64,000 bases of DNA from Planctomycetales bacterium (GTDB lineage Bacteria > 4484-113). The DNA lies in assembly GCA_030606285.1 (NCBI GenBank), contig JAUWGS010000001.1, positions 1-64,000 on the forward strand. The letters run 5' to 3'. This document shows positions 5,341-55,784 of the stretch, piece by piece. The notes below the pieces were generated by a model. That model was not told the DNA's origin and did not search any database. It saw only the letters and a list, made by a program, of their open reading frames with translations. Numbering within the stretch: the stretch's first letter is position 1; every line of letters starts with the position of its first letter. The translations under genes were made by a program, and so were the position numbers.

Positions 5341-5877
5341 CTAGCTCAGAGACTCGACAACAATCTCGGAGTTGGTGTAGATGCAGATTCCGGCGGTGAT
5401 TTCAAGGGCGCGGCGGGCGATTTGCTCCGCTGAGAGCTTCTTGTTCTCCGACAGAGCCTTGGCTGCCGCAAGCGCGTATCCAGCGCCGCTGCCGATGGCG
5501 GCGAAATCCTCGTCCGGCTCGATGACCTCGCCGGTGCCTGAGATCAGGAGCATTGTATCGCTGTCGCAGGTGAGCAGCAGCGCTTCAAGGCGCCGCAGGT
5601 ACTTGTCGGTGCGCCATTCCTTAGCCAGCTCCACAGCCGCGCGGCGAAGCTCCTTGAACTGCTTGAGCTTGGCCTCGAAGCGCTCAAAAAGCGTGAGCGC
5701 ATCGGCCACCGCGCCGGAGAATCCCGCAATGACCGAACCCTCGGCCAGCAGCCGGATTTTCCTGGCCTTGGTCTTGAGGATCATGTCGGCGTGAGTCACC
5801 TGGCCATCGCCGGCGATGGCGACGGTACCGCCCCGGCGCATGGCGCATATGGTCGTCCCGCGATACTCGGTCTCCAT
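5341..5877 (-). CDS. hslV: ATP-dependent protease proteolytic subunit HslV
   Basis: HslV is the peptidase dodecamer of the HslUV (ClpYQ) cytoplasmic protease, an N-terminal threonine hydrolase. The 178-aa protein has METEYRG then TTI, so Thr8 would be exposed after propeptide removal, as in relatives with an F-H-G-TT start. Further family marks are VAIAGDGQVT, VIAGFSGAVADALTLFERFE, ELAKEWRTDKYLRRLEA, AIGSGAGYALAAA and the terminal GICIYTNSEIVVESL. The unfoldase gene hslU, normally adjacent, is absent from this window. There is no Shine-Dalgarno site; an extended -10 box lies 6 nt from the ATG, so the mRNA is probably leaderless. Confidence 0.93.
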   Translation of the reverse strand: METEYRGTTICAMRRGGTVAIAGDGQVTHADMILKTKARKIRLLAEGSVIAGFSGAVADALTLFERFEAKLKQFKELRRAAVELAKEWRTDKYLRRLEALLLTCDSDTMLLISGTGEVIEPDEDFAAIGSGAGYALAAAKALSENKKLSAEQIARRALEITAGICIYTNSEIVVESLS

Positions 5878-5883
5878 GCCGCG

Positions 5884-5892
5884 ATTCTAGCA
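5884..5892 (-). promoter_or_regulatory. Extended -10 promoter of hslV (leaderless start)
   Basis: On the minus strand TGCTAGAAT is followed by 6 nt and the hslV ATG. With the usual 6-8 nt from -10 to transcript start, the RNA would begin at the start codon. Confidence 0.55.
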
Positions 5893-6041
5893 TAGGGCAC
5901 GAGGAGAGCCGGCTTCGACCTAGCCGTCTGCGTAATCCGCGACAGCTCAGGCGAGCCCCTCTGGGGCGAGTAAGCCCCGTGGCTGTGGTAGAATTAACGT
6001 GAGTTGACGCGCTCGATGCGGGCGCAAGGAGATGGGGACTC

Positions 6042-9000
6042 ATGTCTCGCAGGAAGATACTCGCTGTTTGGGCAGTCGTCATCGCACTGACGGTAATACT
6101 CGCGCTGATTCTTGCCGCGTGCGGAAGGCATTGCGGGCAGGTCACACAGCTCTCGCTTGCGCCGCCGACAATTGAGCAGCCGGCGGAGGAACAGGACTCA
6201 GATGATGGCGGCGTGCTGCCGCCGGTGCTGGAGCTGGACGGATGCATTGCGGTGTCGCGTGAGGTGTCTGAGGACGACACCAGGACCAGCCAGGGCTGGG
6301 AGGCGTATAGAGACGGACAGACCGGCACCAATGGCACGTCTGGACTGAACGTGGAGACCGAGGGTACAGCGCTAACGCTGCGAGCTTACACTGCGGGCGA
6401 ATACGCCTACGCTGTCTATGGCCAAGCTGTAGGTGCAGTCCTGAAGCCACTGCAGACGCTGATTGACAGCGACCCCTGCGCCTTCGGTGGCGGGCAGGAC
6501 GACGACATACCGCTATCGTATTTCGTGGGCGCGGCGGACTACAGCCGAGGCTCATGGCGCTGGTTCGGGCCGTTTGGCGAAGAAGACGTGATGGTAACAA
6601 TGAACTCGGAGATGCTGCGCAGCCGCTTCAAATCGCCCAACGGGAACTTCTATCTGTGCGTGCTGGCGAGTAACGGCAGCAAGGCTGCAAGCGCACTGCC
6701 GGAGGAAGGCTTGGTGGCGAACTTCCCGCTTGCGCCGAGCACACGAAGGATTTCAGCGCAAGACAATGATCCTGGCGGCCTAAAGGTCAAGGAGATCGTC
6801 ACATGGGTGCGAGAGAACCTGTATATGGAGCCTGCGGTGGTGACGGGGCTTTCAGTGAGCACCTCCACGGCTGGCGTAACGCTGGACTGGGACAAGAACC
6901 CCGATCCTGACGTGGACATCTATCAGATATTCCGCCGGGACGCGGACACGGAAGATCCCGGAGAGATGATAGCCTCGGTCTTTGCTACGCGCACCTACCT
7001 TGCGGACTCGAAGGAGGACCCACTCTGGCAGATATACCCCTGGGAAGTGGGCGTTCCAGGGAAAGAATATGAATACAGCGTTCGCGCACGCAACGATGCG
7101 GGCTACGGCGGATACAGCATTGTGACCGGCATTCGGCTGATGACTGCTCCGACGGTAGACGCATCGGACGGCGCGTACAGCGACCATGTGCGAATCGACT
7201 GGACGGCTGTCGAGGGCGCTGAGGGCTACTCGGTGCTGAGGGCGGACACGATAGACGGCGCGAAGATTGAGCTGGCATCCACTGATTCTGAGACATTTAC
7301 TTACAACGACTACGATGTCGTTCTCGAAAAGGGTTACTACTATTGGATTCAGTCTTCAGGCGAAGATATCGTGGGGCCGCTTGGCGGGCCGGATGCGGGA
7401 TTGGCGCTGGAGCTTGAGCCGTTGCAGGTAATAGCGACGGACGGGGACTATCCCGACCGGGTGGAGCTCATCTGGGGTGAGAGTGACGCGCCGCTGCTGG
7501 AGTATTACAGCGTTTACCGGGACACGGACGAGGTCGAAGGAGGAGAGGAGTTCCTGGGATCGGTTACTCCGCCGGAGCACGCATGCACAGACTACACTGC
7601 GCCGTGGGATGAGCCGCGCTTCTACTTCGTAAGGCCATTCACGGGAAGTGAGGGTGATCCCGGCACTGGAAACTGGGGGCACCGAGGACTGGCAGTGCCC
7701 GGTAATGTGACTGCGACGCAGGGGACATTTGCCGGCAAAGTTGTTGTTAGCTGGGACGCGGTGAATCAGGCAACGAGGTACCGGGTGTATCGCGGTGCGT
7801 CAGCGGGCGACCCGTCGCCCCAATACTTGGGTGAGGTGCCAGCGCCCGCTATGAGCTACCAGAACCCTACGGCGCAGTGGGACGTACACTACTTCTACTC
7901 GGTCTTGGCTTTACACACGGGGCCTGATGACGAGGCCAGCGACCTGAGCGAGCCCGCCGAAGGCTGGCGCGGCACTGGGATACCGGAGAATGTCTCAGCA
8001 ACCGACGGCACAAAGAAGGCATCGGTGAACGTCTCGTGGAATGCGGTATCGCAGGCGACGCACTACCGGGTGTACCGCAGCGAGACGGAGAACGACCCGA
8101 CGCCAACATTGCTCAATACAGTATCAGCGCCTGCGACCGGCTACACTGACAACGCAGCCGCGCATAACACGCTTTACTGGTACTGCGTGAGCGCGCTCTA
8201 CAAAGGCGACGAAGGCGCAAAAAGCGCTGACGACAGCGGCTATCGCGGCCTGTCTCCGCCGCTGAATGTCCAGGCGTCAGACGACTTAGAAGACACAATC
8301 GAGATAACCTGGAGCAGCGTGACCGGCGCGACGGGCTACATCATCTGCCGGTCGGAAACCGACACCGGCACCTACACCGAGATCGGCACCGACGACGCCA
8401 GTCCATATCTGGACGGCCCGTTTACTCCGCCCGTCATCTACTGGTACAAGCTCAAAGCCACCAATTCGTTGGCGACGAGCGCCTTCAGCAACGCCGATGA
8501 AGGGAGTGTGGGAGGAGACCTCCGCGGCGACTGGTGGATGTTTGGGCGCGAGCCAACGCACAATCGGAGAAGCCCTTATGTTGGAGCACAAACAAACAGT
8601 CTCAAGTGGAGACATCCCATTGGCGACTTCGTGAAATCCAGTCCTGCGATAGGCGCTGATGGGACTGTCTATGTGGGCAACGACTGCGACCTCAGTGCGA
8701 TCAGACCTGATGGGACGCTCAAGTGGGAATACCAGACGGAGGACCAAGTAGACAGCAGTCCGGCAGTTGGCGAAGACGGCACCGTGTACGTGAGAAGCTG
8801 GGACGGCTATCTCTACGCAATCAAACCCGACGGGTCGCTCGACTGGAGATGCCAGACGGGTGAGGCAACGGGGAACTGGGTGGATTCAAGCCCTACCATA
8901 GGTGAGGATGGAACCATCTACGTGGGAAGCTTCGACGGCGACCTGTGCGCCATCAAGCCTGATGGAACGCTCAAATGGCGGTATGAAACCGGGAACGGCG

Positions 9001-10193
9001 TGTATTCCGGTCCAGCCATAGGTTCAGACGGCACCATCTACGTGGGAAGCGATGATTACTACATTTATGCTATCAAGCCAGACGGGACGCTCAAATGGCG
9101 ATTCGAGACCGATTCATACGTGGATGCGAGCTCGGCAATTGGCGCAGATGGCACGGTTTACGTGGGGAGTTTTGATGGAAACCTGTATGCTCTCAGGCCC
9201 GATGGAACGCTCAAGTGGAGCTATGAGACCGGGGGGGGTGTGTACTCCAGCACCGCGATAGGGGAAGACGGAACCATCTACGTAGGAAGTGATGACGACT
9301 ACCTGTACGCCATCAGGCCCGATGGCTCGCTCAAGTGGAGATATCAGACGGATGATAGTGTGCTCTCCAGTCCGGCTGTAGGCGCAGACGGGACAATCTA
9401 TGTGGGAAGCTGGGGCGGCTTTCTCTACGCCGTCAATCCGAACGGGACGCTCAAGTGGATGGCTGACACCGGGGGCGAGATCTGGTCCAGTCCGGCCATA
9501 GGCGCTGACGGAACGGTTTATGTTGGCTGTGACGATGGCTATTTGTTTGCTTTCAATGCAGTAGTCGAGCAGCCTCCCACTATTTGCTCAGTGAGTCCCA
9601 TAGTAGGGCAAGAAGTAGAACCTGTTACGTTCTCTGCTGAGGTCTGGGGGACGCAGCCATTCGCCTATTCCTGGGACTTCGGTGGTGGTGCAACTCCGAA
9701 TACTAGCAGCGAAACATCGCCCACGGTTACCCTCGGAGTGCCGGGCAGTTACGATGCTTCGCTGGATGTTACAAATACGTATGGTGAAGATACGTTCGGA
9801 TTCACGCTCACGGTGAACGAACCCGGTGATTACGACGAGGTAGAGGACAATGACAGCCCGAGCAAGGCGAATCAACTTCCCTCGTTCGACTTCAGCAGCT
9901 TCACAGGAAGCCTGGGTCCCGGCGGATACGACGGCGATGATCACGACTGGTTCGAGTTCACCGCTTCCGTTGACGACACCGTGAAGCTGTGGATGCATTT
10001 GGACTCTGGCACCGGGGACCTCGATATAGAGCTGGAGGACAGCGATGGCATTTATCTCGACGGCTCCGGCGGCATCGGGAACGAGGAGTACATTGAGTAT
10101 ACGTTCCAGGTGGGCGACACATCGCCCTTCTACCTTCACGTCTACGCCTATAGCGGCTACTCGGACTACATCATTGTTGGTCATCTCTTTTGA
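6042..10193 (+). CDS. Giant lipoprotein: fibronectin-like, eight-blade PQQ propeller, PKD, PPC domains
   Basis: The 1383-aa protein starts at an ATG with AAGGAGA 9 nt upstream. A membrane segment and lipobox LAAC (Cys27) predict a lipoprotein. After an N-terminal domain shared with the protein at 45.5-49.0 kb (FGGGQDDDIPLSY, YSxGSWRWFGPF), several fibronectin III-like modules run from about 263 to 823. Then comes GDWWMFGREPTHNRRSPY near 829 and eight PQQ-type blades (core SSPAIGADGTVYVGS...LYAIKPDGTLKW) at about 865-1170, a PKD-like domain (YSWDFGGGATPN) at about 1177-1260 and a PPC-like C-terminus (EDNDSPSKANQL...DWFEF). PQQ-type blades often serve as scaffolds without cofactor, so enzymatic activity is not implied. 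Surface binding is inferred. The UGA stop is followed in frame by another header and blade. Confidence 0.85.
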   Translation: MSRRKILAVWAVVIALTVILALILAACGRHCGQVTQLSLAPPTIEQPAEEQDSDDGGVLPPVLELDGCIAVSREVSEDDTRTSQGWEAYRDGQTGTNGTSGLNVETEGTALTLRAYTAGEYAYAVYGQAVGAVLKPLQTLIDSDPCAFGGGQDDDIPLSYFVGAADYSRGSWRWFGPFGEEDVMVTMNSEMLRSRFKSPNGNFYLCVLASNGSKAASALPEEGLVANFPLAPSTRRISAQDNDPGGLKVKEIVTWVRENLYMEPAVVTGLSVSTSTAGVTLDWDKNPDPDVDIYQIFRRDADTEDPGEMIASVFATRTYLADSKEDPLWQIYPWEVGVPGKEYEYSVRARNDAGYGGYSIVTGIRLMTAPTVDASDGAYSDHVRIDWTAVEGAEGYSVLRADTIDGAKIELASTDSETFTYNDYDVVLEKGYYYWIQSSGEDIVGPLGGPDAGLALELEPLQVIATDGDYPDRVELIWGESDAPLLEYYSVYRDTDEVEGGEEFLGSVTPPEHACTDYTAPWDEPRFYFVRPFTGSEGDPGTGNWGHRGLAVPGNVTATQGTFAGKVVVSWDAVNQATRYRVYRGASAGDPSPQYLGEVPAPAMSYQNPTAQWDVHYFYSVLALHTGPDDEASDLSEPAEGWRGTGIPENVSATDGTKKASVNVSWNAVSQATHYRVYRSETENDPTPTLLNTVSAPATGYTDNAAAHNTLYWYCVSALYKGDEGAKSADDSGYRGLSPPLNVQASDDLEDTIEITWSSVTGATGYIICRSETDTGTYTEIGTDDASPYLDGPFTPPVIYWYKLKATNSLATSAFSNADEGSVGGDLRGDWWMFGREPTHNRRSPYVGAQTNSLKWRHPIGDFVKSSPAIGADGTVYVGNDCDLSAIRPDGTLKWEYQTEDQVDSSPAVGEDGTVYVRSWDGYLYAIKPDGSLDWRCQTGEATGNWVDSSPTIGEDGTIYVGSFDGDLCAIKPDGTLKWRYETGNGVYSGPAIGSDGTIYVGSDDYYIYAIKPDGTLKWRFETDSYVDASSAIGADGTVYVGSFDGNLYALRPDGTLKWSYETGGGVYSSTAIGEDGTIYVGSDDDYLYAIRPDGSLKWRYQTDDSVLSSPAVGADGTIYVGSWGGFLYAVNPNGTLKWMADTGGEIWSSPAIGADGTVYVGCDDGYLFAFNAVVEQPPTICSVSPIVGQEVEPVTFSAEVWGTQPFAYSWDFGGGATPNTSSETSPTVTLGVPGSYDASLDVTNTYGEDTFGFTLTVNEPGDYDEVEDNDSPSKANQLPSFDFSSFTGSLGPGGYDGDDHDWFEFTASVDDTVKLWMHLDSGTGDLDIELEDSDGIYLDGSGGIGNEEYIEYTFQVGDTSPFYLHVYAYSGYSDYIIVGHLF

Positions 10194-10397
10194 CCAGGTC
10201 CTGGCGACTGGTGGATGTTTGGGCGCGAGCCCACGCATAACCGCAGAAGCCCTTACGTGGGAGCGCAAATAGACAACCTCAGGTGGCGATGGCGATACCA
10301 GACCGACGGGAATGCGTACTCCAGTCCAGCGATAAGCGCTGATGGCACCATTTATGTGGGAAGCCATGACGGTTACCTCTACGCCTTCGGCGACTAG
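10194..10397 (+). pseudogene. In-frame single-blade PQQ relic downstream of the UGA stop
   Basis: Continuing past the TGA at 10191-10193 in the same frame, the sequence reads PGPGDWWMFGREPTHNRRSP, YVGAQ, then one blade (SSPAISADGTIYVGSHDG, YLYAFGD) and a TAG. The header and blade closely resemble those of the large proteins at 6.0-10.2 kb and 45.5-49.0 kb. It is either the collapsed remnant of another propeller gene or a readthrough extension. No start codon with a ribosome site is seen. Confidence 0.65.
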
Positions 10398-10521
10398 AGC
10401 TACTAAGAGGAAGTAGCCAGGGGCCAGCCCACCTTCGCCAAGGCTACGGCGGGTAAATAGCCAGTAGCCGGGGAAGAGATGTAGGGGCATCACGCCTTGG
10501 CGTGACCGTGTCCTTCCCACC

Positions 10522-10592: not shown

Positions 10593-10654
10593 AATTGGGG
10601 GTTTTCTCTGGAAGGTGGCTGACCTCTAAGTGACCGGTAACTGCGGGTGCTCAG

Positions 10655-10726: not shown

Positions 10727-10769
10727 GCGCTGTGATTATAACGCAACCGCCCCTTCCGCTGCACAGGCG

Positions 10770-10798
10770 TTGACGCGCTGGCGTGCGTGGCTTACACT
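10770..10798 (+). promoter_or_regulatory. Promoter of mutL
   Basis: TTGACG (10770-10775), a 17-bp spacer and TACACT (10793-10798). The ATG follows after 8 nt, so the transcript would have essentially no leader, although GGAGG lies inside those 8 nt. Confidence 0.65.
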
Positions 10799-10806
10799 TG
10801 GAGGCG

Positions 10807-12642: not shown

Positions 12643-12643
12643 G

Positions 12644-15781: not shown

Positions 15782-16654
15782 TCATTCCTGACCGAAAGGC
15801 TCAATGTGGATTACAACATCCACCACTTCAGGGAGTTCGCGGTTAATGCAGTCTTTGACGCTGTGCGAGAGCCTATGGCCTTCTTCTACCGTGAGATCAG
15901 GTTTCACTTTCACGTGCAGGTCCACGGCTACGGCGTCGGGCGTGCCCCTGCTTCGCACGTTGTGCACTGAATAAATCCCATCAACTCTTAGAGCGCAGTC
16001 CGCGATTACTTGGGGGTCCAACTGCGCTGAGTCCACGAGGATACTGAATGTGCCGCGTATAAGCCTAAATCCTACCCAGACAATGACCAGAACCACCACG
16101 CACGCTGCCGCCAGGTCAGCCCAGGGCACTCCGAAGCTGACGCAGAGGATGGCGATGAGGACGATTGCGCTGCTCAGGAAGTCCGTAGCGGTGTGCGCAG
16201 CGTCGGCTGTCAGGAATTCGCTCTTGTGTTTGCGTCCCAGGATTCCTTCATACCTGATGACAAACAGGTTTGCCAGCATGGAGACTCCCATGGCGGCGAA
16301 CGGCCAGAAGCCGGTCTGAGGAGTGAAGCTCTCTCGGAAGCGGTTCATTGCGGCGAGAAAGATGTGCGTTCCCGCCAGGAACATCATGAATGCCACGACT
16401 AAAGCGGCGAAGGTCTCATACTTCCTGTGGCCGTAAGGATGGTCGGCGTCGGGGGCGCGCTTCGCCTGCCGCATAGCCGTGAAGCCGATTACGTTATTCG
16501 TCGTGTCCAGCAGGGATTCAAAACCGCTGGCGGTAACGGACAGCAGTCCGGTGAGCAGCCCAACGCTTATCTTCGTCATCGCAACCGCGAGGTTGATGAT
16601 AAACGTCACCACGATGGCGCGGATGATGGCTGCGGTTCGCTCGCTGCGAGACAT
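15782..16654 (-). CDS. Cation diffusion facilitator family efflux protein
   Basis: This inner-membrane antiporter family exports divalent metals such as zinc, iron or manganese. The 290-aa protein has about six membrane segments, the signature HPYGHRKYE after the second pair, a metal site with DAAHTATDFLSS (HxxxD) in TM5 and SGFESLLDTTNN in TM2, and a cytoplasmic domain with VDLHVKVKPDLTVEEGH and a final VVIHIEPF. There is no Shine-Dalgarno site. A TATACT box on the minus strand lies 9 nt before the ATG and overlaps the -10 of the divergent gene. The substrate metal cannot be assigned from sequence. Confidence 0.9.
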   Translation of the reverse strand: MSRSERTAAIIRAIVVTFIINLAVAMTKISVGLLTGLLSVTASGFESLLDTTNNVIGFTAMRQAKRAPDADHPYGHRKYETFAALVVAFMMFLAGTHIFLAAMNRFRESFTPQTGFWPFAAMGVSMLANLFVIRYEGILGRKHKSEFLTADAAHTATDFLSSAIVLIAILCVSFGVPWADLAAACVVVLVIVWVGFRLIRGTFSILVDSAQLDPQVIADCALRVDGIYSVHNVRSRGTPDAVAVDLHVKVKPDLTVEEGHRLSHSVKDCINRELPEVVDVVIHIEPFGQE

Positions 16655-16663
16655 ACGCTCAGT

Positions 16664-16671
16664 AGTATACT
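16664..16671. promoter_or_regulatory. Palindromic -10 shared by divergent genes
   Basis: AGTATACT contains TATACT on both strands (16666-16671 plus; 16669-16664 minus). The plus start codon is 8 nt away and the minus start codon 9 nt away, so one palindrome can serve both genes, with both transcripts starting close to the initiator codon. Confidence 0.55.
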
Positions 16672-16679
16672 ATGTCGTG

Positions 16680-17420
16680 ATGAAGAAGAGCGCCATAGCG
16701 ATTGCAGTAATCGGCGACGAGATACTCAATGGCACGACGCGCGACGACAACTCCTACTGGCTGACACAAAGGCTTGTGGAAATTGGTGCAGAAGTAGGCA
16801 TTGTCGTTGTGCTTCCTGATGATATGGATGTACTCGAGCGGAGGCTGCGCGAACTATGCCGGGAGTACAGCGCCGTCATTACGACCGGTGGCATCGGCCC
16901 GACGCACGACGATCTAACGCGGGAAGCAGTGGCGCGCGCCTGCCGCAGGCCTTTAGCGCTGAATGCGGATGCAGAAGCGATGATAGCCGCTTCGCACAAG
17001 GGCGAGCTTACCGAAGTGCGCAGGCGGATGGCGATGCTGCCGGAAGGCTGCGAACTCATTGGGAACACGCAAACCGGCGCGCCGGGCTTCCACGTGGACA
17101 ACATCTATGTGTTCCCGGGGATACCCGGACTGCTCCACGAGATGTTTGAGCAGGTGGCGGAGAATTTCCGCGGCAGTGTCTTCCACAAGGACTCGATTGA
17201 AGTCAGTGTCGGCGAGAGCCGCTTCGCTGACGTGCTCGAAGAAGCTCAGAAAAAGTGGCCCGACGTCTCCATCGGCAGTTATCCGAAGCTGGACAACTGG
17301 GCATGGGTGGAAGTGCGGATCCGCAGCCGCGACCTGGAGAAGCTGAAGGAGTGTTGCTCCTGGCTTCGGCCCCGGCTCAAAGAAGTGGAGGAGAAAAACA
17401 AGCCTTCCCGGGAGGACTAG
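16680..17420 (+). CDS. CinA-type competence/damage-inducible N-terminal domain protein
   Basis: The 246-aa protein is a stand-alone MoCF-like (molybdopterin-binding) domain of the CinA family, without the C-terminal nicotinamide-nucleotide amidase domain. Motifs are AVIGDEILNGTTRDDNSYWL, TTGGIGPTHDDLTREAVA, RRMAMLPEGCELIGN, APGFHVDNIYVFPGIPGL, then a C-terminal domain related to CinA's KH-like part. CinA N-terminal domains act as ADP-ribose or ADP-compound pyrophosphatases in nucleotide recycling; activity here is inferred. The ATG at 16680 begins the conserved region. No ribosome site is seen; TATACT lies 8 nt upstream. Confidence 0.85.
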   Translation: MKKSAIAIAVIGDEILNGTTRDDNSYWLTQRLVEIGAEVGIVVVLPDDMDVLERRLRELCREYSAVITTGGIGPTHDDLTREAVARACRRPLALNADAEAMIAASHKGELTEVRRRMAMLPEGCELIGNTQTGAPGFHVDNIYVFPGIPGLLHEMFEQVAENFRGSVFHKDSIEVSVGESRFADVLEEAQKKWPDVSIGSYPKLDNWAWVEVRIRSRDLEKLKECCSWLRPRLKEVEEKNKPSRED

Positions 17421-17481
17421 CGGGCTCACAATCTTTCGAACGGATAGGTGGCGAAGCACACTTCAGGTATAATGAAACAGT

Positions 17482-18869: not shown

Positions 18870-19153
18870 ATTCCGGTCACTTAGACCTGTCTGATTCTAC
18901 CAGACATAGATAACAGATGCGCGGTCGCGGGGGGAAGTTCCAGGTTTCCGGCCGCAGCATAGCTGTTTTCTCCACACGCTGTAGTCCCCTTCTCAACAAC
19001 TTAGTAAAGCATAGCAATTTGAGGTGGACGATTTCTACGGATGATTAAGCTTCGCAGGTGCGCTCGGGCGGCATTGTGTGGACAGTGTTTAACCACCATA
19101 CACGCTGAGCCTGAAGAGCTGCACGGGAGCGTTTCCTATATAATGGTCGCACT

Positions 19154-24400: not shown

Positions 24401-24500
24401 GGCAGACGATTATACCTGCTTACCGTGCTGAAGGTCGCGAATGTCAGGCGCGTCGCAGACTCTACTGCGGTTGCAGCCGAATACCTGATAGAATTATGCT

Positions 24501-25097: not shown

Positions 25098-25116
25098 GCT
25101 GTGCTAGAATGAGTGT

Positions 25117-27734: not shown

Positions 27735-30700
27735 TCATCCGCCCTTTACCCAAAGCACGTCACCGCCTTTGCCGCCGAATTCGTTCGCGGCTCCCGGGTG
27801 GGGAATGGCCGCGTTGCCGCCACCGCCACCTGTCGCTTTGCCCTTGCCGCCTTTAGCGCCGTCCCCGGCCGGCTTATCGCAGTGTCCGCCATCTCCAGCG
27901 ACTGCGGTAACATCGCCACCGTCGCCGCCATTGGCGGTTGCTGTACCGTCAGTGCCACCAGAACCGCCCGCACTCCCGCGGAAAGCAAAGGCAAATCCGC
28001 CCTTCCCGCCAGTGGCTGTAGCATCCAGGCCGGGAAGCTGATTGACCAAGGCGACCGGCGGGTCGGGATTAGCAGTAGCATTGCCGCCTCTGCCTCCTGT
28101 CGCGGTGCCACTGCCACCATCACCATCTCTTCTTTCTCCCGGGATACCTCCTGTACCTCCTGGGCGACCGTACGCCACCGCGGCTCCGCCAGCACCACCT
28201 TCCGCGATTGTAGGACCCGGGATATCAGCAATAGCATTACCGCCCGCGCCGGCGGTAGCGGTGGCAGTACCACCATCGCCAGCTTCGAATGCATCCCCGG
28301 TAAAAGCTCCGATGCCTCCAGTCGCCCCGGAAAGGCGGGAATTGCCGCCCTTTCCGGATTTGGCATCCGCTTTACCGCCATCTCCGCCGGTCGCATTTGT
28401 CGCACAGTTAAGGGCGTGGCCGCCACCTCCGCTGGTCGCGGTAGCATCGCCGCCCTGGCCACCTCGTCCGCCATCAACTGTCACATTGATGAGACCATTA
28501 ACGGTTCCTCTCAAAATGGCTAGTTTAGAGGCATTACCTCCTCTTCCCCCATACGCTGTAGCCGCGCCACCATTCTGTCCACGGGGGCAATCGTTATTGC
28601 CAATGGCACAGGTTGCGGTTCCATTACCTCCGTTCCCGCCACTTCCGGGATTCAGAGTAACGGGGCCCTGGAAGTCAAGTTCCACCGTAGCGGCAATCCT
28701 GAGACGGCTTGCGGCATTTCCGCCGCTTCCGCCTCTGGCGTGTGCACTTCCTCCCGCAGCCGCGGCATCGTTCCCGGCCTCGCCAGCGCCGCCATCCCCA
28801 CTAGAGAAAGTACCGCCCCTAATAATCAGCGTTCCTCTAACAGAAACGTCTAGGCTGCCACCTTGCCTGCCATAACGACCCGAGCCGCTCGCTCCTGGGA
28901 CAGCTCCCACACCGTTGCCGCCGTGCATCGCTCGGACGTCTCCACCGTTGAAAACGATAGTGCCGCTGCCCCAGAGTCGGCCTCGTTTACCGGGGCGGTT
29001 GTCTGGAGCCCGCCTTACCGGGTTAGTGAAGTTGAAAGTACCGTCGGGATTCGGAGGAATAACGGCTGAAGTGGAGAGTGACGAAGGAGCTGAAGCCACG
29101 AAAACGTATACCGAAGCCGTGGCGGTGGACTCATTGGTGTCCGTGTCGGTCACCGTAAGCGCCACGTCGTAGCGTCCGCCAGTAGTGAAAGCGTGGGACG
29201 GATTGGGTTCGCTGGACGACCCCATATCTCCGAAATCCCAGTTATAGGTAAGCTCCTCCCCCTGTGCGTCCACAGCATCCGAGCTAAAGAAGACCTCCTC
29301 GCTAACCTCCGCCACGATGACCGGCGGTTCTATCCAAATCCCCGGGGACTCCGGGATGTTCTCTTCTCCGTCGTCTGTTACGATGCGCAGCGTCGCCAGT
29401 GAAAATTCTCCATCGTCGTCAGTCACCATTAGAATTACGTCATAGGTGCCCCAAGCCGTGTAGGTGTGCACTGGGTACTTCTCGGTCGAAGATGCGCCAT
29501 CGCCAAAATCCCACTCGTAGGTGACAGGTCCTCCGTCCGGGTCGGCGCCTTCGCCATAGAACTGGATTTCCGCCGAAGAGCCGTCAAACAGAGAGTCGTG
29601 GATAATGTCTGCCGTAGCCGCGCCCACAGGTGGTAGCTGAGTTGCGGAACGCTCGTGAGGTAACACGTCAAACTCCCATCCCTCGACGCTCGGATCGTTT
29701 GTGATGTCGATGTTACCGGAAGAATCCAAAGTTGCCGCAGTATCCTCAGTGCCAATATTAATAACGCCACCGTCGGTTTGAATGATCAGGTCACCGGGCT
29801 CCTCCGGGTCGCTATCAGTACTGTTGTCCACCGTTCCGGTGATCGTTATGTCTCCTTGTCCCTGGATGTTAATCTCATAGCCATCGCTGGTAAGTGTGCC
29901 CTCAACGTTGATATCCCCACTCACTTCGAAGGTCGCATCTCCAAGAACGGTAACGGTCACACCTGGAGGGATATCTATGGATGTGAAGGCGTAAGTGCCC
30001 CCGTCCAGGTTAACATCTGAAGTGGGGTGAAACTCGCCAATCACCCTGGAGGGCTCACCCTCGACCGAAGAGGAATCGTACGGTACCACGCGATGATAGA
30101 CATGCGACAGCGCTCCGAGGTCAAAGCTGAACTGTAGGCGTTCCTCGCCCGTAGCATCAGCAAACGCCACTGTGTCAATTGGGGTGAATTCTGCTCCTAG
30201 CTCGACCACTCCCTGAACGGAGTAGCCTGCAAGTTCGCTGTTGAAGTTTACCGCAAGCGGTGTGATGTCGCTGATGCCGATGGCACCGTTGCTGTCGCCA
30301 TCGATCCATTCGTTCGCCGGCACAGCAGTCTGGTTATAGCAAATGGCGATTGGCGTGATGTCCTCAATGCCCACGGTTCCATCTTGGCCGTAGTCGCCAA
30401 CATTGGTGTACGACCACGTGAGGGTGTACGTCCCATCGCCGTCATCGATGAGTTCGAGATCGTCCACCCGGTTAGCTTCGCCGGTAGGCGGCTTGGAGAC
30501 GATCTTGCTGACGCCTCTGGCCATAAGCTGCTCGGCCAGCGCCTTCTTGAGTGTGTCGAATAGCGCCGGATCGACTTCGGACGGCGCCTGGAGCACGTCC
30601 AGCTCCGCCAGCGCTTCGTCCAGCGACTGCTCAACCAGCACCCCGGGCGCAGGTCGCTCCGTAGTAGTGCTGCCGATCGTCGGTAGCGTAGTCTTACGGC

Positions 30701-30797
30701 TCTTCTTCCCGCCGCACGTCGCCAGCAGTGCGACCAGTAGCACGAGCGTAAGGGTGAATAAGGCGATGGGAATCCAGTGTAGATGCCTGATTCTCAT
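27735..30797 (-). CDS. Lipoprotein with dockerin-like, two PKD and PGRS-like Gly-rich regions
   Basis: The 1020-aa product has a signal and lipobox ending at Cys28 (LLATC). Residues 50-130 match the partial protein at the window start. Two F-hand loops follow at 135-184 (DYGQDGTVGIED, DGDSNGAIGISD), then a beta-rich region, two PKD domains (YEWDFGDGASS at about 420; YNWDFGDMGSS at about 525), and from about 600 a region dominated by GG[NDR]GG, TATGGRGGNA and similar repeats, like mycobacterial PGRS tails that fold as polyproline II sandwiches. A surface-exposed adhesive role is inference. The frame continues past its UGA stop. Antisense frames that look open here are composition artefacts of the Gly-rich DNA. 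Confidence 0.8.
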   Translation of the reverse strand: MRIRHLHWIPIALFTLTLVLLVALLATCGGKKSRKTTLPTIGSTTTERPAPGVLVEQSLDEALAELDVLQAPSEVDPALFDTLKKALAEQLMARGVSKIVSKPPTGEANRVDDLELIDDGDGTYTLTWSYTNVGDYGQDGTVGIEDITPIAICYNQTAVPANEWIDGDSNGAIGISDITPLAVNFNSELAGYSVQGVVELGAEFTPIDTVAFADATGEERLQFSFDLGALSHVYHRVVPYDSSSVEGEPSRVIGEFHPTSDVNLDGGTYAFTSIDIPPGVTVTVLGDATFEVSGDINVEGTLTSDGYEINIQGQGDITITGTVDNSTDSDPEEPGDLIIQTDGGVINIGTEDTAATLDSSGNIDITNDPSVEGWEFDVLPHERSATQLPPVGAATADIIHDSLFDGSSAEIQFYGEGADPDGGPVTYEWDFGDGASSTEKYPVHTYTAWGTYDVILMVTDDDGEFSLATLRIVTDDGEENIPESPGIWIEPPVIVAEVSEEVFFSSDAVDAQGEELTYNWDFGDMGSSSEPNPSHAFTTGGRYDVALTVTDTDTNESTATASVYVFVASAPSSLSTSAVIPPNPDGTFNFTNPVRRAPDNRPGKRGRLWGSGTIVFNGGDVRAMHGGNGVGAVPGASGSGRYGRQGGSLDVSVRGTLIIRGGTFSSGDGGAGEAGNDAAAAGGSAHARGGSGGNAASRLRIAATVELDFQGPVTLNPGSGGNGGNGTATCAIGNNDCPRGQNGGAATAYGGRGGNASKLAILRGTVNGLINVTVDGGRGGQGGDATATSGGGGHALNCATNATGGDGGKADAKSGKGGNSRLSGATGGIGAFTGDAFEAGDGGTATATAGAGGNAIADIPGPTIAEGGAGGAAVAYGRPGGTGGIPGERRDGDGGSGTATGGRGGNATANPDPPVALVNQLPGLDATATGGKGGFAFAFRGSAGGSGGTDGTATANGGDGGDVTAVAGDGGHCDKPAGDGAKGGKGKATGGGGGNAAIPHPGAANEFGGKGGDVLWVKGG

Positions 30798-30953: not shown

Positions 30954-31125
30954 TACGTGCGGAGTAAGGAGTGGAAGGCCGCGCAGCAGCTATCATCGAA
31001 GCCACACCTGTTATTTGACACCTAAACCAGGCGTGCGAATCCGCCCGCCGAAGCGAGCATGCGCACGTGTGCGCGTAAATAGATACGTTACGAAGGTGAT
31101 TGCAGAAATATCAAGCAGATAGAGT

Positions 31126-34117
<2,992 letters not shown>

Positions 34118-43204: not shown

Positions 43205-43233
43205 TTGACGCGTGGCAAAGTGTCTGATATAAA
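43205..43233 (+). promoter_or_regulatory. Promoter of infC operon
   Basis: TTGACG (43205-43210), a 17-bp spacer and TATAAA (43228-43233). The GTG start of infC follows after 9 nt. Confidence 0.75.
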
Positions 43234-45537: not shown

Positions 45538-48500
45538 CTAATAATAGAAGGCGTACTTGAGGTTTCCGTTGGTGTAGTCGACGTAGCTAATGGCGGGGTT
45601 GCCGTTGACTATCGCGAGGGAGGCGTTCCCGCCCACACCTGCGCTGTCCACGGTTTGTGGTGTTCCCCAGCTACTTCCGCTGGCATCGGTTGCCCGCACA
45701 TACTTGAGGTCGCCGTTGGTGGCGTCGAGGTAGCCAATGGCCGGGTAGCCATTGACAATCGCGAGGGATGTACCCTCGATGCCCACATCCCCTTCGCTAT
45801 CCACCGTTACCGGGCTTCCCCAGATGTTCCCGCTGGCATCGCTCGCCCGGACATACTTGAGGTCGCCATTGGTCTCGTCATAGTAGCTAATGGCGGGATT
45901 GCCATTGATAATTGCCATGCGCGCGTAGTGGCCCACATCTCCCTCGCTATCCACCGTTACCGGGCTTCCCCAGATGTTCCCGCTGGCATCGCTCGCCCGG
46001 ACATACTTGAGGTCACCGTTGGTCTCGTCGTAGTAGCCAATGGCGGGGTTGCCATTGACAATTACCAGGGATGTGTACGGACTGCAGTCGTAAGTACTTC
46101 CGATGCTATCCAAAACTTCCGGGCTTCCCCAGCTTGCTCCATTTGCATCAGTCGCCCGCACGTACTTCAGGTAGGCGTTGCCGTCCTTGTCATAGTAGCT
46201 AATGGCCGGGTTGCCATTGACCACACAGAGCGAGGTCCCGGTCCCGGTGCGCACCGCCCCCCCGCTATCCACGGTTACCGGCGTTCCCCAGCTACTTCCA
46301 TTCGCATCAGTTGCCCGAACATACTTGAGGTCGCCGTTGGTGTCGTCGAAGTAGCTGATGGCGGGGTAGCCATTGACAATCTCGAGGGAGGTATCCCATC
46401 CCACATCCCCGTCGCTATCCACGGTTATCGGGCTTCCCCAGCTTGCGCCGGCGGGATCGCTTGCGCGCACATACTTGAGGTCGCAGTTGCCCCAGTCAAA
46501 GTAGCTAATGGCGGGCTTACCGTTGACAGCAGCAAGCGAGCTGTGCGTGCCCACATTATCTTCGCTATCCACGGTAACTACCCTCCAGTGGTATCCCGAA
46601 TCATTAAAGGCGTAGAGGTAACCGTCATGGCTTCCCACATAAACCGTCCCATCAGCGCTTATCGCTGGACTGGAGTCGATATAGCCGCCCGTCTGGTATC
46701 GCCACTTGAGCGTCCCTTCAGTCTCGCTATCAGTGATGGCGTAGAGGTAGAAGTCCTCGCTTCCCACGTAAACAGTTCCATCAGCGCCTATCGCCGGGCT
46801 GGACTCCACATAGCCGCCAGTGACGTATTTCCACTTGAGCGTTCCATCTGGGTCTATGGCGTAGAGGTAACCGTCATGGCTTCCCACATAAATCGTCCCA
46901 TCGGCGCCTATCGCTGGACTGGAGAGAATGACTTCAGTAGGAGGAGAGCCGCCTTGCTCTGTCATGTACTCCCACTTCTTGGTCCCCTCAGTCTCATTGT
47001 CGATGATGGCGTAGAGATAGCAGTCATGGCTTCCCACATAAATAGTCCCATCGGCGCCAATCGCTGGACTGCAGTCCACCATATCCCCCGTCTGATATTT
47101 CCACTTGAACATCCCATCGGAGTTGATGGCGTGGAGGTAGCCGTCCTCGCTTCCCAGGTAGACAGTCCCATCTGCTCCTATCGCTGGACTTGACTGAGTC
47201 TTCCAGCCCGTCTCGTAGCGCCACTTGAGTGTGCCGTCAGGCTTGATGGCGTAAAGGTAATTGTCTTCGCTTCCCACATAGATGGTTCCATTGGCGGCTA
47301 TCGCCGGACTGGAGGGCACACAGTCACCGGTCGGGTATCGCCACTTTAGCGTCCCTTCAGTCTCGCTATCAGTGATGGCGTAGAGGTAGTTGTCCATGGT
47401 TCCCACATAGATAGTCCCATCCCGGCCTATCGCAGGACTGGAGAACACAGGGCCTCCAGTCTCGTATCGCCACTTGGGCGTACCGTCAGGATTCACAGCG
47501 TAAAGGTATTTGTCGCAGCTTCCCGCGTAGATAGTTCCGTCGGCGGCAATTGCGGGGCTTGAGATTACAATACCTTCAGTTTGATAGCGCCACTTGAGAC
47601 TTGCAGTTTGCGTTCCCACGTAAGGACTTCTACGGTTGTGCGTCGGCTCGCGTCCGAACATCCACCAGTCACCGCGCTCAGGCTCAGGCTCATACACCGT
47701 GAGCGTGAAGGGGAATGTGTCGTCGCCGTGCGCGTTCGTCAAAATAAGCGAACCACTGTAGCTCTCCGGGTCACCCAGGACCACTATCGGCCTGGCCTCG
47801 GTGCTGGTGTTGGGCGTCGCGCCGCCGCCGAAATCCCATTCGTAAGTGAACGGCTGGCTTCCTGAGACTATCGCGGCGAACTTCACCAGGGCGCCCTCGC
47901 TGCCCGATGTCGGGCTGACACCTCGAATCACCGGTGGGCCGACGTTAACGTATCCCATGCCGCCGGGCCCGACATCGTTTACCGCCTGCACGCCGTAGAC
48001 GTAGGTTACGCCGGCTTCGGCGCTCATATCGTCATACCCGGTCGTCGGGGCTGCTACTGAATCAAGCCATACCGGCGGCCCTTCAATCCCCGCTTCCTTG
48101 CGGTAAATCTCGTAGCTGGTCACGTCCGGGTCGGGATTCACGTCCCAGCTAAGCGCGATCCTGTCGGCTTCGATGCTCGCCACAAGCCCGGTCACTATTT
48201 CAGGCACCGTGCCGATGCCGCTGTCTGCGTCGGTCACGACACGAACGATTGTTACACCACAGGCGTCTTCACCGGATTGGGAGGCGTTTCGCAGTCCTGC
48301 CGCAAATGGAAGCTTTCCCACCAGCCCATCTTCCGGCAGCCGGCTTGCAGCCTTGTCGCCGCTGGCTGTGAGCACTGCCAAGTACAAGTTGTCGTTGGGT
48401 GACTTGAACCGATTTTTAAGCGTGTCGGTATTCAGATAGGCCGTCTCGTCGTTATCGCTAAACGGCCCGAACCAGCGCCACGAGCCGGCACTGTAGTCTG

Positions 48501-49011
48501 CCGCGCCTACATAATACGATAGCGGTATGTCATCGTCCTGTCCGCCGCCAAAGCTGCAAACTTCGCTGTCAATCAGGGACTGAAGGGGAACGTCGTCGTC
48601 CTGCCCGCCTCCCCACTCGCCGTCTCCGATCTGCTGCACAAACAGGGCATAGGTGTATTCGCCGGGCTCATAGGCTCTGAGATGCAGCTCCGAGCCATCG
48701 ACTTCAATGCTGTATTCGCGGTCGCTGGTACTGCCCGAGCCTTCGGGAGAGTAATCGGAGCCAAAGCTGATTACCTGGGATTCGGCGCGCACGCCTTTTG
48801 GCGCATTGACCATTAGCTCGTCAAGCGCCATCACCGGCGGCAGGACTCCGCCACCTGACTCCTGTCCTTCAGCAGACTGTTCAGTCGCAGGAGTCAGCGA
48901 AAGCTGCATCACCTGCCGCGCGCGCTTTCCACACGCGGCAGAAATCAGCACGAGTATGACCGTCAGCGCGATGATGACTGCCCAAGCAGCAAATATCTTC
49001 CTATGAGACAT
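45538..49011 (-). CDS. Giant lipoprotein: eight-blade PQQ propeller plus seven PAISY repeats
   Basis: The 1157-aa protein starts at MSHRKIFAAW with GGAGAGGGG upstream; the lipobox is SAAC (Cys27). The N-terminal domain (about 30-260) is shared with the 6.0 kb protein (FGGGQDDDIPLSYYVGAADY). Then come a fibronectin-like module (270-350), a PKD-like domain (YEWDFGGGATPN, 357-440), GDWWMFGREPTHNRRSPY near 450, eight PQQ-type blades (470-797) and seven repeats of about 50 residues with core SLAIVNGNPAISYYDETNGD and LKYVRA (800-1157). The seven-unit part matches the repeats of the protein at the window start. A TATAAT (49056-49061, minus strand) lies about 45 nt upstream. Long plus-strand frames here are antisense shadows. 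Role unknown, surface exposed by inference. Confidence 0.85.
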   Translation of the reverse strand: MSHRKIFAAWAVIIALTVILVLISAACGKRARQVMQLSLTPATEQSAEGQESGGGVLPPVMALDELMVNAPKGVRAESQVISFGSDYSPEGSGSTSDREYSIEVDGSELHLRAYEPGEYTYALFVQQIGDGEWGGGQDDDVPLQSLIDSEVCSFGGGQDDDIPLSYYVGAADYSAGSWRWFGPFSDNDETAYLNTDTLKNRFKSPNDNLYLAVLTASGDKAASRLPEDGLVGKLPFAAGLRNASQSGEDACGVTIVRVVTDADSGIGTVPEIVTGLVASIEADRIALSWDVNPDPDVTSYEIYRKEAGIEGPPVWLDSVAAPTTGYDDMSAEAGVTYVYGVQAVNDVGPGGMGYVNVGPPVIRGVSPTSGSEGALVKFAAIVSGSQPFTYEWDFGGGATPNTSTEARPIVVLGDPESYSGSLILTNAHGDDTFPFTLTVYEPEPERGDWWMFGREPTHNRRSPYVGTQTASLKWRYQTEGIVISSPAIAADGTIYAGSCDKYLYAVNPDGTPKWRYETGGPVFSSPAIGRDGTIYVGTMDNYLYAITDSETEGTLKWRYPTGDCVPSSPAIAANGTIYVGSEDNYLYAIKPDGTLKWRYETGWKTQSSPAIGADGTVYLGSEDGYLHAINSDGMFKWKYQTGDMVDCSPAIGADGTIYVGSHDCYLYAIIDNETEGTKKWEYMTEQGGSPPTEVILSSPAIGADGTIYVGSHDGYLYAIDPDGTLKWKYVTGGYVESSPAIGADGTVYVGSEDFYLYAITDSETEGTLKWRYQTGGYIDSSPAISADGTVYVGSHDGYLYAFNDSGYHWRVVTVDSEDNVGTHSSLAAVNGKPAISYFDWGNCDLKYVRASDPAGASWGSPITVDSDGDVGWDTSLEIVNGYPAISYFDDTNGDLKYVRATDANGSSWGTPVTVDSGGAVRTGTGTSLCVVNGNPAISYYDKDGNAYLKYVRATDANGASWGSPEVLDSIGSTYDCSPYTSLVIVNGNPAIGYYDETNGDLKYVRASDASGNIWGSPVTVDSEGDVGHYARMAIINGNPAISYYDETNGDLKYVRASDASGNIWGSPVTVDSEGDVGIEGTSLAIVNGYPAIGYLDATNGDLKYVRATDASGSSWGTPQTVDSAGVGGNASLAIVNGNPAISYVDYTNGNLKYAFYY

Positions 49012-49104
49012 TAGCCCCTCTCCCCGCGCCCATATCCGGCGCACAAGCTAATCAGATTATACCATCGCGAGACAACAGCAAGAACGTGGTTCGCGTGGTG
49101 ATCG

Positions 49105-50026: not shown

Positions 50027-50032
50027 TATAAT
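50027..50032 (+). promoter_or_regulatory. -10 box of the permease gene (leaderless start)
   Basis: TATAAT ends exactly 6 nt before the GTG start. A possible -35 is TTGCGC at 50002-50007, with a long 19-bp spacer. Confidence 0.55.
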
Positions 50033-50038
50033 CTGGGC

Positions 50039-51250: not shown

Positions 51251-51300
51251 GCGGGGGTGGCTCGCTGTTATAATGGTGACGGTGGGCGTGGTGGTGGCAA

Positions 51301-52578: not shown

Positions 52579-52636
52579 CACTAGAAGGGCACCGTACACA
52601 GCTGATCTTGTCGCGTATGAGCCCGCAGCCAACTCC

Positions 52637-54580: not shown

Positions 54581-54586
54581 ACGCCT

Positions 54587-54592
54587 ATTCTA
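54587..54592 (-). promoter_or_regulatory. -10 box of uvrC (leaderless start)
   Basis: TAGAAT on the minus strand, exactly 6 nt before the uvrC GTG. Confidence 0.5.
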
Positions 54593-54601
54593 CCCGACGC
54601 G

Positions 54602-54610
54602 TGCTATCAT
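54602..54610 (+). promoter_or_regulatory. Extended -10 box of folK (leaderless start)
   Basis: TGCTATCAT, exactly 6 nt before the folK ATG. It is 9 bp from the divergent uvrC -10 box, so the two promoters interleave. Confidence 0.5.
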
Positions 54611-54616
54611 TCACCG

Positions 54617-55120
54617 ATGCACGAGGTGTATCTTTCGCTGGGTGCGAACCTGGGCGACCGCGAGACTGCGATTCGCGGCGCGATAGACGAGCTGGGAAAG
54701 CTTCAGAGCACAGACGTCGCCGCCGTGAGCGGTTTCTACGAGACCAGCGCGGTGGGATTTGTCTCCGAGCACCGGTTCCTCAATTGCGTTGTGCGGCTGC
54801 ACACCAGCCTCCCACCGCCGGTGCTGCTGGAAGTGTGCCGGCGCATTGAGCGCGAATTCGGGCGCGAGCGCGATGGGGGAGGGGGGCAGATGCGCGACCG
54901 CACGCTGGATATTGACATCATCCTCTACGGGGAACTTACGCTTCAGACGCCCGGCTTAGTTATCCCGCACCCGGAGGCCACGCGCAGGCTTTTTGTGCTC
55001 GTGCCACTTGCCGAGCTTGAAAAGGGCCTTGTAATTGGCAGGCGCACGGTCGAGAAATGGATCGAACTCGTGCGTAAAGAACACCCCGAACAGGAAATCC
55101 GCCGCTACGCCGGCGGCTAG
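54617..55120 (+). CDS. folK: 2-Amino-4-hydroxy-6-hydroxymethyldihydropteridine pyrophosphokinase
   Basis: FolK (HPPK) transfers pyrophosphate from ATP to the pterin precursor of folate. The 167-aa protein has YLSLGANLGDRETAIRGAID, FLNCVVRLHTSLPP, EREFGRERDGGGGQMRDRTL with the RxRTLDIDIILYG signature, and PHPEATRRLFVLVPLAEL. The ATG at 54617 begins the conserved N-terminus; the longer open frame upstream would run through uvrC's promoter. It converges on the DUF5615 gene. Confidence 0.94.
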   Translation: MHEVYLSLGANLGDRETAIRGAIDELGKLQSTDVAAVSGFYETSAVGFVSEHRFLNCVVRLHTSLPPPVLLEVCRRIEREFGRERDGGGGQMRDRTLDIDIILYGELTLQTPGLVIPHPEATRRLFVLVPLAELEKGLVIGRRTVEKWIELVRKEHPEQEIRRYAGG

Positions 55121-55134
55121 CTGGTGTGCACGCC

Positions 55135-55497
55135 TCAGAGCGGCAGAGGTCTCAGCCTGATCCGTGATTCCTCAATCACAACGACCGCTCCTTTCGCCAA
55201 ATGTTCTTCAATTGCCGGCAGGTTGGAAAGGAGCACTGCGAGCTGTTCTTCAGGCCGCCTTGGTTTCCCCCTGAAGAGTATGACGCTCAGCCTACCTGCC
55301 GGGTCTTCCGACACCAGCCTTGCGAAGTCCATATCCGCCGATATGATAATGCGCTCTTCACGAAGAGCAGTCTCACGAATCTCGGCGTCCGAAGCTCTCT
55401 GGAGTTCGTAATCCCGCACGTGAGCGCTGTCATAGCCCGCCGACTTCAGCCCCTGCGCAACGACCGGTGACAGGGCGTTGTCAACCAGGAACTTCAT
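55135..55497 (-). CDS. DUF5615 family PIN-like toxin
   Basis: The 120-aa protein MKFLVDNALSPVVAQGLKSA with HVRDYELQRASDAEI, REERIIISADMDFARLV and SVILFRG has the DUF5615/Mut7-C pattern: a PIN-like nuclease fold with acidic residues Asp6, Asp (SADMDF) and others. Such proteins pair with DUF433 antitoxins. The ATG overlaps the antitoxin stop by one base (TGATG), the standard coupling. Confidence 0.85.
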   Translation of the reverse strand: MKFLVDNALSPVVAQGLKSAGYDSAHVRDYELQRASDAEIRETALREERIIISADMDFARLVSEDPAGRLSVILFRGKPRRPEEQLAVLLSNLPAIEEHLAKGAVVVIEESRIRLRPLPL

Positions 55498-55724
55498 CAG
55501 GAGCTAACGAGCGGAAGTGTTTGCTCTCTAACCGCTTCAGCAGCGTACTTAAGGGCTTCGCTAATGTCCTCCGGTTGCAGGTCGGGATAAGCGTTGAGGA
55601 TTTCCTCAGAGGTCATGCCTTCCGCTATCAGCCCGACAACGGTCGCGACCGGTATCCTCAGCCCGCGAATGCAGGGTACTCCTCCCATTTTCTCCGGGTC
55701 AATGGTGATACGCTCAAACTTCAT
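55497..55724 (-). CDS. DUF433 family antitoxin
   Basis: The 75-aa protein MKFERITIDPEKMGGVPCIRGLRIPVA is a DUF433 (VapB-type, winged helix) antitoxin, with IAEGMTSEEILNAYPDLQPEDISEALKYA. It precedes and is coupled to the DUF5615 toxin gene. The start at 55724 is the conserved one. TATAAT (55734-55739, minus strand) lies 9 nt from the ATG. Confidence 0.85.
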   Translation of the reverse strand: MKFERITIDPEKMGGVPCIRGLRIPVATVVGLIAEGMTSEEILNAYPDLQPEDISEALKYAAEAVREQTLPLVSS

Positions 55725-55784
55725 CGCAGCATTATTATACCCTGAGGGGAAAACGCCTGCCCTGCTCACTCATACCACAGCCTC

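What the first reader, a model, noticed from the sequence alone, without database searches (positions are those of the whole stretch)
5875..55739. Many genes have a -10 box exactly 6-9 nt from the start codon: widespread leaderless transcription
A TANAAT-type -10 box ends 6 nt before the start codon of hslV (5877), the 24501 gene, the 25117 lipoprotein, the permease (50039), uvrC (54580) and folK (54617); 8 nt before mutL, cinA-type, flbD-like and hypC; 9 nt before infC, the CDF gene, the 19154 gene and the DUF433 antitoxin. Several are extended boxes (TGnTANAAT) with no -35 and no ribosome site. A constant 6-nt gap puts the transcript start at the initiator codon. Leaderless mRNAs are common in Deinococcus, Actinobacteria and archaea, so this is a useful trait of the lineage.
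Basis: partly seen in the sequence, partly recalled or inferred. Interest (0 to 1): 0.75.

Follow-up and report, generated by a model that had tools for sequence, protein, structure and literature searches.

The report
Leaderless genes throughout an uncultured phylum
In this uncultured bacterium (candidate phylum 4484-113, also called Ca. Niteriota), roughly one in five of the genes that begin a transcription unit has its promoter -10 box placed so that the RNA should begin at or within a few bases of the start codon, without a ribosome-binding leader; the trait is known from Mycobacterium and Deinococcus, but I found no report of it in this phylum.

Summary
I fetched 1.60 Mb of the 2.30 Mb genome and called genes from codon statistics alone, using no motif. 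TANAAT then ends 6, 7, 8 and 9 nt before 35, 21, 11 and 13 of 761 transcription-leading starts, against about 3.5 per position elsewhere. Genes inside operons show no peak and carry Shine-Dalgarno sites instead. The learned motif is TGnTATAAT, with a sharp left edge at 6 nt, no -35, a pyrimidine before the start codon at the 6-nt spacing, and almost no TTG starts. E. coli lacks the peak; Deinococcus deserti has it. The -10 box and its distance are conserved in relatives while the flanks diverge; uvrC keeps the arrangement in 9 of 10 genomes of the phylum. About 11% (direct excess) to 25% (model-based) of leading genes are affected. This is a known kind of expression in a phylum where I found no report of it. 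No transcript starts were mapped.

The parts
5884..5892 (-). Extended -10 box TGCTAGAAT, hexamer ending 6 nt before hslV ATG at 5877
   Evidence: score 14.2, no SD; conserved as TGCTAGAAT-N6-ATG in G002 and, with the start moved, in G001
24486..24494 (+). Extended -10 box TGATAGAAT, 6 nt before GTG 24501 (protein without a Pfam match)
   Evidence: conserved in G002 as TAGAAT-N6-ATG
25102..25110 (+). Extended -10 box TGCTAGAAT, 6 nt before ATG 25117 (lipoprotein with SnoaL-like domain)
   Evidence: conserved in G002
50027..50032 (+). -10 box TATAAT, 6 nt before GTG 50039 (MacB/FtsX-type permease)
   Evidence: score 13.6; the box lies inside the longest ORF, so the likely start is 50039 rather than TTG 50012
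54587..54592 (-). -10 box TAGAAT, 6 nt before uvrC GTG 54580
   Evidence: same arrangement (6-8 nt) in 9 of 10 genomes of the phylum
54602..54610 (+). Extended -10 box TGCTATCAT, 6 nt before folK ATG 54617; back-to-back with the uvrC box in a 36-nt intergenic region
   Evidence: both boxes and spacings conserved in G002
17468..17473 (+). -10 box TATAAT, 8 nt before flbD ATG 17482
   Evidence: Pfam FlbD matches from residue 1 to profile position 1, supporting the start
24409..24414 (-). -10 box TATAAT, 8 nt before hypC ATG 24400
   Evidence: HypC profile aligns 1-65 to 1-65, supporting the start; same spacing in G002, 6-7 nt in G007 and G004
55734..55739 (-). -10 box TATAAT, 9 nt before the DUF433 ATG 55724
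   Evidence: score 12.7, no SD
19139..19144 (+). -10 box TATAAT, 9 nt before GTG 19154
   Evidence: model probability 0.96 leaderless; no Pfam match
16663..16672 (.). Palindromic TAGTATACTA between two divergent genes: on - it gives TATACT 9 nt before the cation-efflux gene (ATG 16654), on + TATACT 8 nt before the cinA/MoCF-type gene (ATG 16680)
   Evidence: score 7.3 on each strand, above the 99th percentile of the null (6.6)
43228..43233 (+). TATAAA, 9 nt before infC GTG 43243: uncertain member
   Evidence: score 5.5, between the 95th and 99th percentiles of the null; start of infC not fixed
10793..10798 (+). TACACT, 8 nt before mutL ATG 10807: not supported; GGAGG just before the ATG
   Evidence: score 2.8, below the 95th percentile of the null (3.0); model probability 0.47

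Best explanation
The boxes are -10 elements of ordinary sigma-70/sigma-A-type promoters, mostly of the extended TGn kind that works without a -35. They are placed so that RNA polymerase, which starts 6-8 nt downstream of the hexamer on a purine after a pyrimidine, starts on the A or G of the ATG/GTG codon or 1-3 nt before it. The mRNA then has no ribosome-binding leader, and the ribosome must begin at the 5'-terminal start codon as in mycobacteria and Deinococcus. Shown here: position, motif, spacing edge, start-codon and -1 base bias, absence inside operons, conservation. Inferred: the actual transcript ends and the leaderless mode of translation.
For: Sharp peak at k=6, with k=4-5 at background, from starts called without any motif. 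A mixture model gives TGnTATAAT (TG 59% and 79%), 209 of 761 leading genes above 0.9 probability, against 22 when the same model reads sequence 200 nt upstream. Pyrimidine at -1 and purine at +1 in 85% at k=6. TTG 0 of 100 at k=6-7; GTG 43% at k=6-9 against 14% in SD genes. No -35 enrichment in boxes with TGn. Footprint: hexamer 79-89% identical between G000 and G002, spacer down to about 43-46%; TANNNT retained at the identical distance in 23 of 28 orthologues. E. coli 0 at k=6 (2.3 expected), D. deserti plasmid 4 (0.7 expected). TGnTAnAAT-N6-RTG against N18 spacing: 320/85 summed over 10 genomes of the phylum, 161/126 over 18 other genomes.
Against: No transcript or protein data exist in the tools for this lineage. 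The spacing tail (k=7-10) shows that a good part of the set may have leaders of 1-3 nt. Direct excess gives only 11% of leading genes; the 25% depends on the model and on moved start codons. Shifted controls at 30-100 nt upstream give higher false rates (89 to 32 genes), probably in part because real distal promoters lie there.
Confidence: 0.93

Rival explanations
1. The transcripts are not strictly leaderless but have very short leaders (1-6 nt), too short for a Shine-Dalgarno site; only the k=6 group starts on the codon itself.
For: Only about 29% of the modelled set has k=6 (60 of 209); at k=7-9 the base before the codon is G in 41 of 94 against 40 of 203 SD genes (p=4e-5), and a pyrimidine-purine step one base before the codon is about as common as at the codon.
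Against: At k=6 the pyrimidine-purine step is at the codon in 85% and rare one base earlier (12%); k=4-5 is at background. Functionally both versions need leaderless-type initiation.
Confidence: 0.4
2. The TA-rich motif is a non-Shine-Dalgarno ribosome-binding or unwinding element in the mRNA, as proposed for the AT-rich sites of Bacteroidetes, not a promoter.
For: It sits at the distance where ribosome sites sit, and SD is missing there.
Against: It is absent from operon-internal genes, which would need it equally (4 TANNNT of 260 at k=6); it is a TGnTATAAT promoter consensus with T1, A2 and T6 nearly invariant; an RNA element would not explain the pyrimidine at -1, the loss of TTG or the sharp edge at 6 nt.
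Confidence: 0.03
3. Chance: AT-rich hexamers in upstream regions, picked out by a reader looking for them.
For: A few listed cases (mutL, infC) are within or near what chance gives.
Against: Ten-fold excess of TANAAT at k=6 (35 against 3.5, p about 4e-23); none at internal start-like codons; conservation across relatives; E. coli negative.
Confidence: 0.01

Closest known systems
Leaderless genes with TANNNT about 12 bp upstream in bacterial genomes (Zheng et al. 2011, PMC3160421)
   Same: Same -10 box position and the same inference; medium-GC genomes show TAtaaT rather than TAnnnT, as here; extended TG also noted there in some genomes.
   Different: That survey of 953 bacterial genomes names Acidobacteria, Actinobacteria, Aquificae, Chloroflexi, Deinococcus-Thermus, Firmicutes, Proteobacteria, Spirochaetes and others; 4484-113/Niteriota is not among the groups named.
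-10-motif adjacent to ORFs in Deinococcus-Thermus (Zhong et al. 2025, PMC12340547)
   Same: Box 6-7 bp before the ORF, coexisting with an SD class, tested by reporters and sigma binding in Deinococcus; a peak at 6 nt also seen here on a D. deserti plasmid.
   Different: There nearly one third of genes, with TACACT the most frequent form; here TGnTATAAT with a strong TG, in another phylum.
Leaderless transcripts of mycobacteria (Shell et al. 2015, PMC4633059; Cortes et al. 2013, PMC3898074)
   Same: About one quarter of transcripts; only ATG or GTG works at the 5' end, matching the TTG exclusion found here.
   Different: Mapped experimentally there; inferred from sequence here.
Bidirectional promoters with symmetric -10 elements (e.g. 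NAR 2026, PMC12825309)
   Same: The 16663-16672 palindrome could serve both strands from one element.
   Different: Only one such shared palindrome was noticed; the divergent leaderless pairs listed have two separate boxes, and such pairs are no more frequent than chance (25 against 26.8 expected).

Membership tests
Leaderless genes with sigma-70-type promoter (bacterial) | -10 hexamer ending about 6-7 nt before the start codon, more than chance | tested here: met
   peak at k=6, 35 against 3.5 for TANAAT
Leaderless genes with sigma-70-type promoter (bacterial) | No Shine-Dalgarno site before the codon | tested here: met
   SD scores of the supported window genes from -4.7 to 2.2; SD class separate
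Leaderless genes with sigma-70-type promoter (bacterial) | Start codon restricted to ATG/GTG (purine +1), pyrimidine at -1 | tested here: met
   TTG 2 of 125 at k=6-9; pyrimidine 46 of 52 at k=6
Leaderless genes with sigma-70-type promoter (bacterial) | Found at genes that start a transcript, not inside operons | tested here: met
   53 of 761 leading against 4 of 260 operon-internal at k=6 (TANNNT)
Leaderless genes with sigma-70-type promoter (bacterial) | Arrangement conserved between relatives | tested here: met
   23 of 28 orthologues; uvrC 9 of 10, hslV 5 of 10, hypC 4 of 6 genomes
Leaderless genes with sigma-70-type promoter (bacterial) | Mapped transcript 5' end at the start codon | not testable with these tools
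   uncultured lineage, no RNA data in the tools
Leaderless genes with sigma-70-type promoter (bacterial) | Translation from a 5'-terminal start codon | not testable with these tools
   needs ribosome profiling or reporters
Bidirectional (symmetric) promoters | One element with -10 sequences readable on both strands | tested here: met
   only for 16663-16672
Bidirectional (symmetric) promoters | Divergent leaderless pairs more common than chance | tested here: not met
   25 observed, 26.8 expected

The most novel reading that the evidence does not exclude
Leaderless expression is an ancestral, phylum-wide mode in Ca. Niteriota that selection keeps for particular genes: uvrC retains a -10 box 6-8 nt from its start in 9 of 10 genomes although the start codon itself has slid along the protein by up to six codons, whereas hslV and hypC switch between leaderless and Shine-Dalgarno starts across the same genomes.
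Probability: 0.4. Interest if true: 0.55.

Novelty: new member of a known kind. Interest (0 to 1): 0.42.

Why it matters
It adds a candidate phylum to the bacterial groups predicted to use leaderless mRNAs heavily and shows the pattern in the ten genomes held, though only weakly in one of them. In practice, automated annotation that relies on Shine-Dalgarno sites may misplace some starts here, as my own codon-only caller did at 25117 and 50039; the -10 box can help to fix them. The orthologue comparison (leaderless in one genome, Shine-Dalgarno in the next, uvrC nearly constant) makes the question of how genes switch between the two modes testable across one clade.

Tried and rejected
TANNNT alone, without gene calls, gives no visible peak; TANAAT does. 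Operon-internal genes put through the same model gave no -10 motif. A special excess of divergent leaderless pairs was tested and rejected; they are merely closer together. A -35 element was looked for and is not enriched where TGn is present; slightly better -35 matches occur where TGn is missing, a usual trade-off. uvrC in 79 other loci: a strong leaderless-type box in 11, including several Caldilineaceae and Armatimonadetes, so the uvrC arrangement is not unique to this phylum. The repeated TGCTACAATCTGCCTATG was examined as a possible inflation of counts; it concerns few genes. G002 and G008 contigs were chosen partly because they held pattern hits, so their percentages may be somewhat high.
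Full report
What the genome is. The window lies on a 315-kb contig of a 2.30-Mb, 36-contig genome. UvrC places it next to JAOZQG01 (91%) and MVCR01, 'Planctomycetales bacterium 4484_113' (62%). The handle searches show these are the same-genus and same-family genomes (G002 and G001; identical match lists). 4484-113 is used in the literature as a candidate phylum (PMC10060404, PMC11484514) and is listed as Candidatus Niteriota, 12 genomes, in PMC11382960. Only ten genomes of the phylum are held. That the window belongs to phylum 4484-113 is inferred from this kinship. A search for 'Niteriota' finds only that review; I found no report on its promoters.

Checking the observation. To test for chance I joined the fetched stretches (1,602,824 bases) and wrote a gene caller that uses in-frame hexamer statistics only (1,178 genes). 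For 761 genes that begin a transcription unit (upstream gene on the other strand, or more than 50 nt away), TANAAT ends k nt before the start as follows: k=4: 4, 5: 4, 6: 35, 7: 21, 8: 11, 9: 13, 10: 5, and about 3.5 per position from 12 to 44. For 260 genes inside operons there is no peak; those show GGAG-type sites at about 5-11 nt. TANNNT at k=6 is 53 against 11.9 (p about 2e-18). Without any gene calls the spectrum of TANAAT to ATG still peaks at 6-7 (46 and 39 against about 21). The exact pattern TGnTAnAAT-N6-RTG occurs 37 times in the 1.6 Mb. Twenty-eight sites are in frame with a called gene, 25 of these exactly at the called start (3 others moved by 5, 6 and 39 codons), and some of the rest head plausible ORFs that the caller had missed.

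Motif and model. A three-class mixture (leaderless, Shine-Dalgarno, neither) with free choice of start returns TGnTATAAT with T1, A2 and T6 above 92%, G of the TG at 79%, and spacings 6: 25%, 7: 18%, 8: 14%, 9: 11%, 10: 8%, with only 1.6% at 5. It assigns 209 genes above 0.9. The same fixed model reading sequence 200, 100, 60 or 30 nt upstream assigns 22, 32, 74 and 89; the nearer controls probably contain real distal promoters. Direct excess with unmoved starts gives 11.4% of leading genes, the model net of the 200-nt control 24.6%. I take these as lower and upper estimates. In the window 8 of 32 modelled leading genes are leaderless above 0.9, and hypC and DUF433 (too small for my caller) add two.

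Why a promoter and not a ribosome site. The left edge at 6 nt is what is expected if the RNA starts at least 6 nt after the hexamer and must contain the whole start codon (inference from established sigma-70 geometry). At k=6 the base before the codon is a pyrimidine in 46 of 52 coding-only starts against 352 of 709 of the other leading starts (p=1.4e-8), as expected of a transcription start on A or G. TTG is nearly excluded (2 of 125 at k=6-9 against 99 of 636, p=1.9e-6). GTG is favoured (67 of 154 against 29 of 203 in SD genes, p=9e-10), though start-codon frequencies were part of that model. In mycobacteria only ATG and GTG work at a 5' end. The element is missing from operon-internal genes, which a ribosome site would not be. 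No -35 enrichment is seen in leaderless promoters with TGn (2.77 mean best match, genome background 2.85); those without TGn have slightly better -35 matches (3.17). At k=7-9 the base before the codon is often G (41 of 94), so leaders of one or a few nucleotides are likely for part of the set. The anti-Shine-Dalgarno CACCTCCTTT is intact at the 16S 3' end, so both modes coexist.

Controls. With the same code, 200 kb of E. coli K-12 has no site at k=6 (2.3 expected) and 250 kb of a D. deserti plasmid has 4 (0.7 expected). The D. deserti sample is small, and its fitted motif was poor; only the distance profile is used.

Conservation. In 28 orthologue pairs with the same-genus genome G002, the hexamer is 79-89% identical and the TG 75-79%, while some spacer positions fall to about 45% and upstream sequence scatters around 55%; TANNNT is kept at exactly the same distance in 23 of 28, and most of the other five have a recognisable box shifted by a few bases. 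G002 and the more distant G008 show the same peak. Over the phylum the 6-nt pattern exceeds the 18-nt spacing 320 to 85, against 161 to 126 in 18 other genomes; G009 has few sites (4 to 1). uvrC has a TANNNT box 6-8 nt before an in-frame start in nine of ten genomes, although the start codon lies at different codon positions (0, -2, -3, -6) and the proteins are as little as about 40% identical. hslV has it in five of ten and hypC in four of six, several of the others showing Shine-Dalgarno-like sites. HypC and FlbD match their Pfam profiles from residue 1, which supports their starts.

Divergent pairs. Divergent genes that are both leaderless sit unusually close: 36 nt between uvrC and folK, 17 of 25 pairs under 80 nt, against 5 of 63 pairs where neither is leaderless. 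Their number is as expected from independence (25 against 26.8). One further pair, the cation-efflux gene at 16654 and the cinA-type gene at 16680, seems to share a single palindromic TAGTATACTA.

Verdict. The trait is known (predicted for 21.6% of bacterial species by Lomsadze et al. 2018, as quoted in PMC9581028; table in PMC3160421). What is added is the phylum and the orthologue comparison. RNA 5'-end mapping remains the decisive test.

Noticed in passing
C12:11258 (L095), C2:10752, C5:6343, C15:5571, C17:169843, C35:7770 of the same genome: The leaderless start TGCTACAATCTGCCTATG recurs. One full copy (L095) heads a 509-aa DNA methylase fused to an Mrr-type nuclease domain; other copies keep only the first codons, and at C15 the 5' end is joined directly to the 3' end of the same gene. 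This looks like an element with internally deleted copies; at C35 the same promoter precedes a PKD-domain protein.
   Followed up: partly
upstream of C35:7770 and C12:11258; many contigs: Dispersed repeats of about 37-70 bases, in both orientations, occur in more than a dozen contigs (blastn).
   Followed up: no
window 6042-10193, 27735-30797 and 45538-49044; C35:7770: Several very large, probably secreted repeat proteins, two of them (6042, 45538) with closely similar segments; pieces related to the C35 PKD protein are scattered over the genome.
   Followed up: no
window 31124-34117 and contig C26:54908-56421: The 23S rRNA lies alone in the window, while the only 16S found is on another contig, so the rRNA genes are apparently not in one operon.
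   Followed up: no
window 16663-16672: A perfect palindrome TAGTATACTA is the only strong -10-like element seen between two divergent genes 25 nt apart, a candidate minimal bidirectional leaderless promoter.
   Followed up: partly
L024, L025, L032, L035, L036 (Caldilineaceae) and L007, L008, L013 (Armatimonadetes): uvrC in these other groups also has a strong -10-like box 6-7 nt before a start codon.
   Followed up: no
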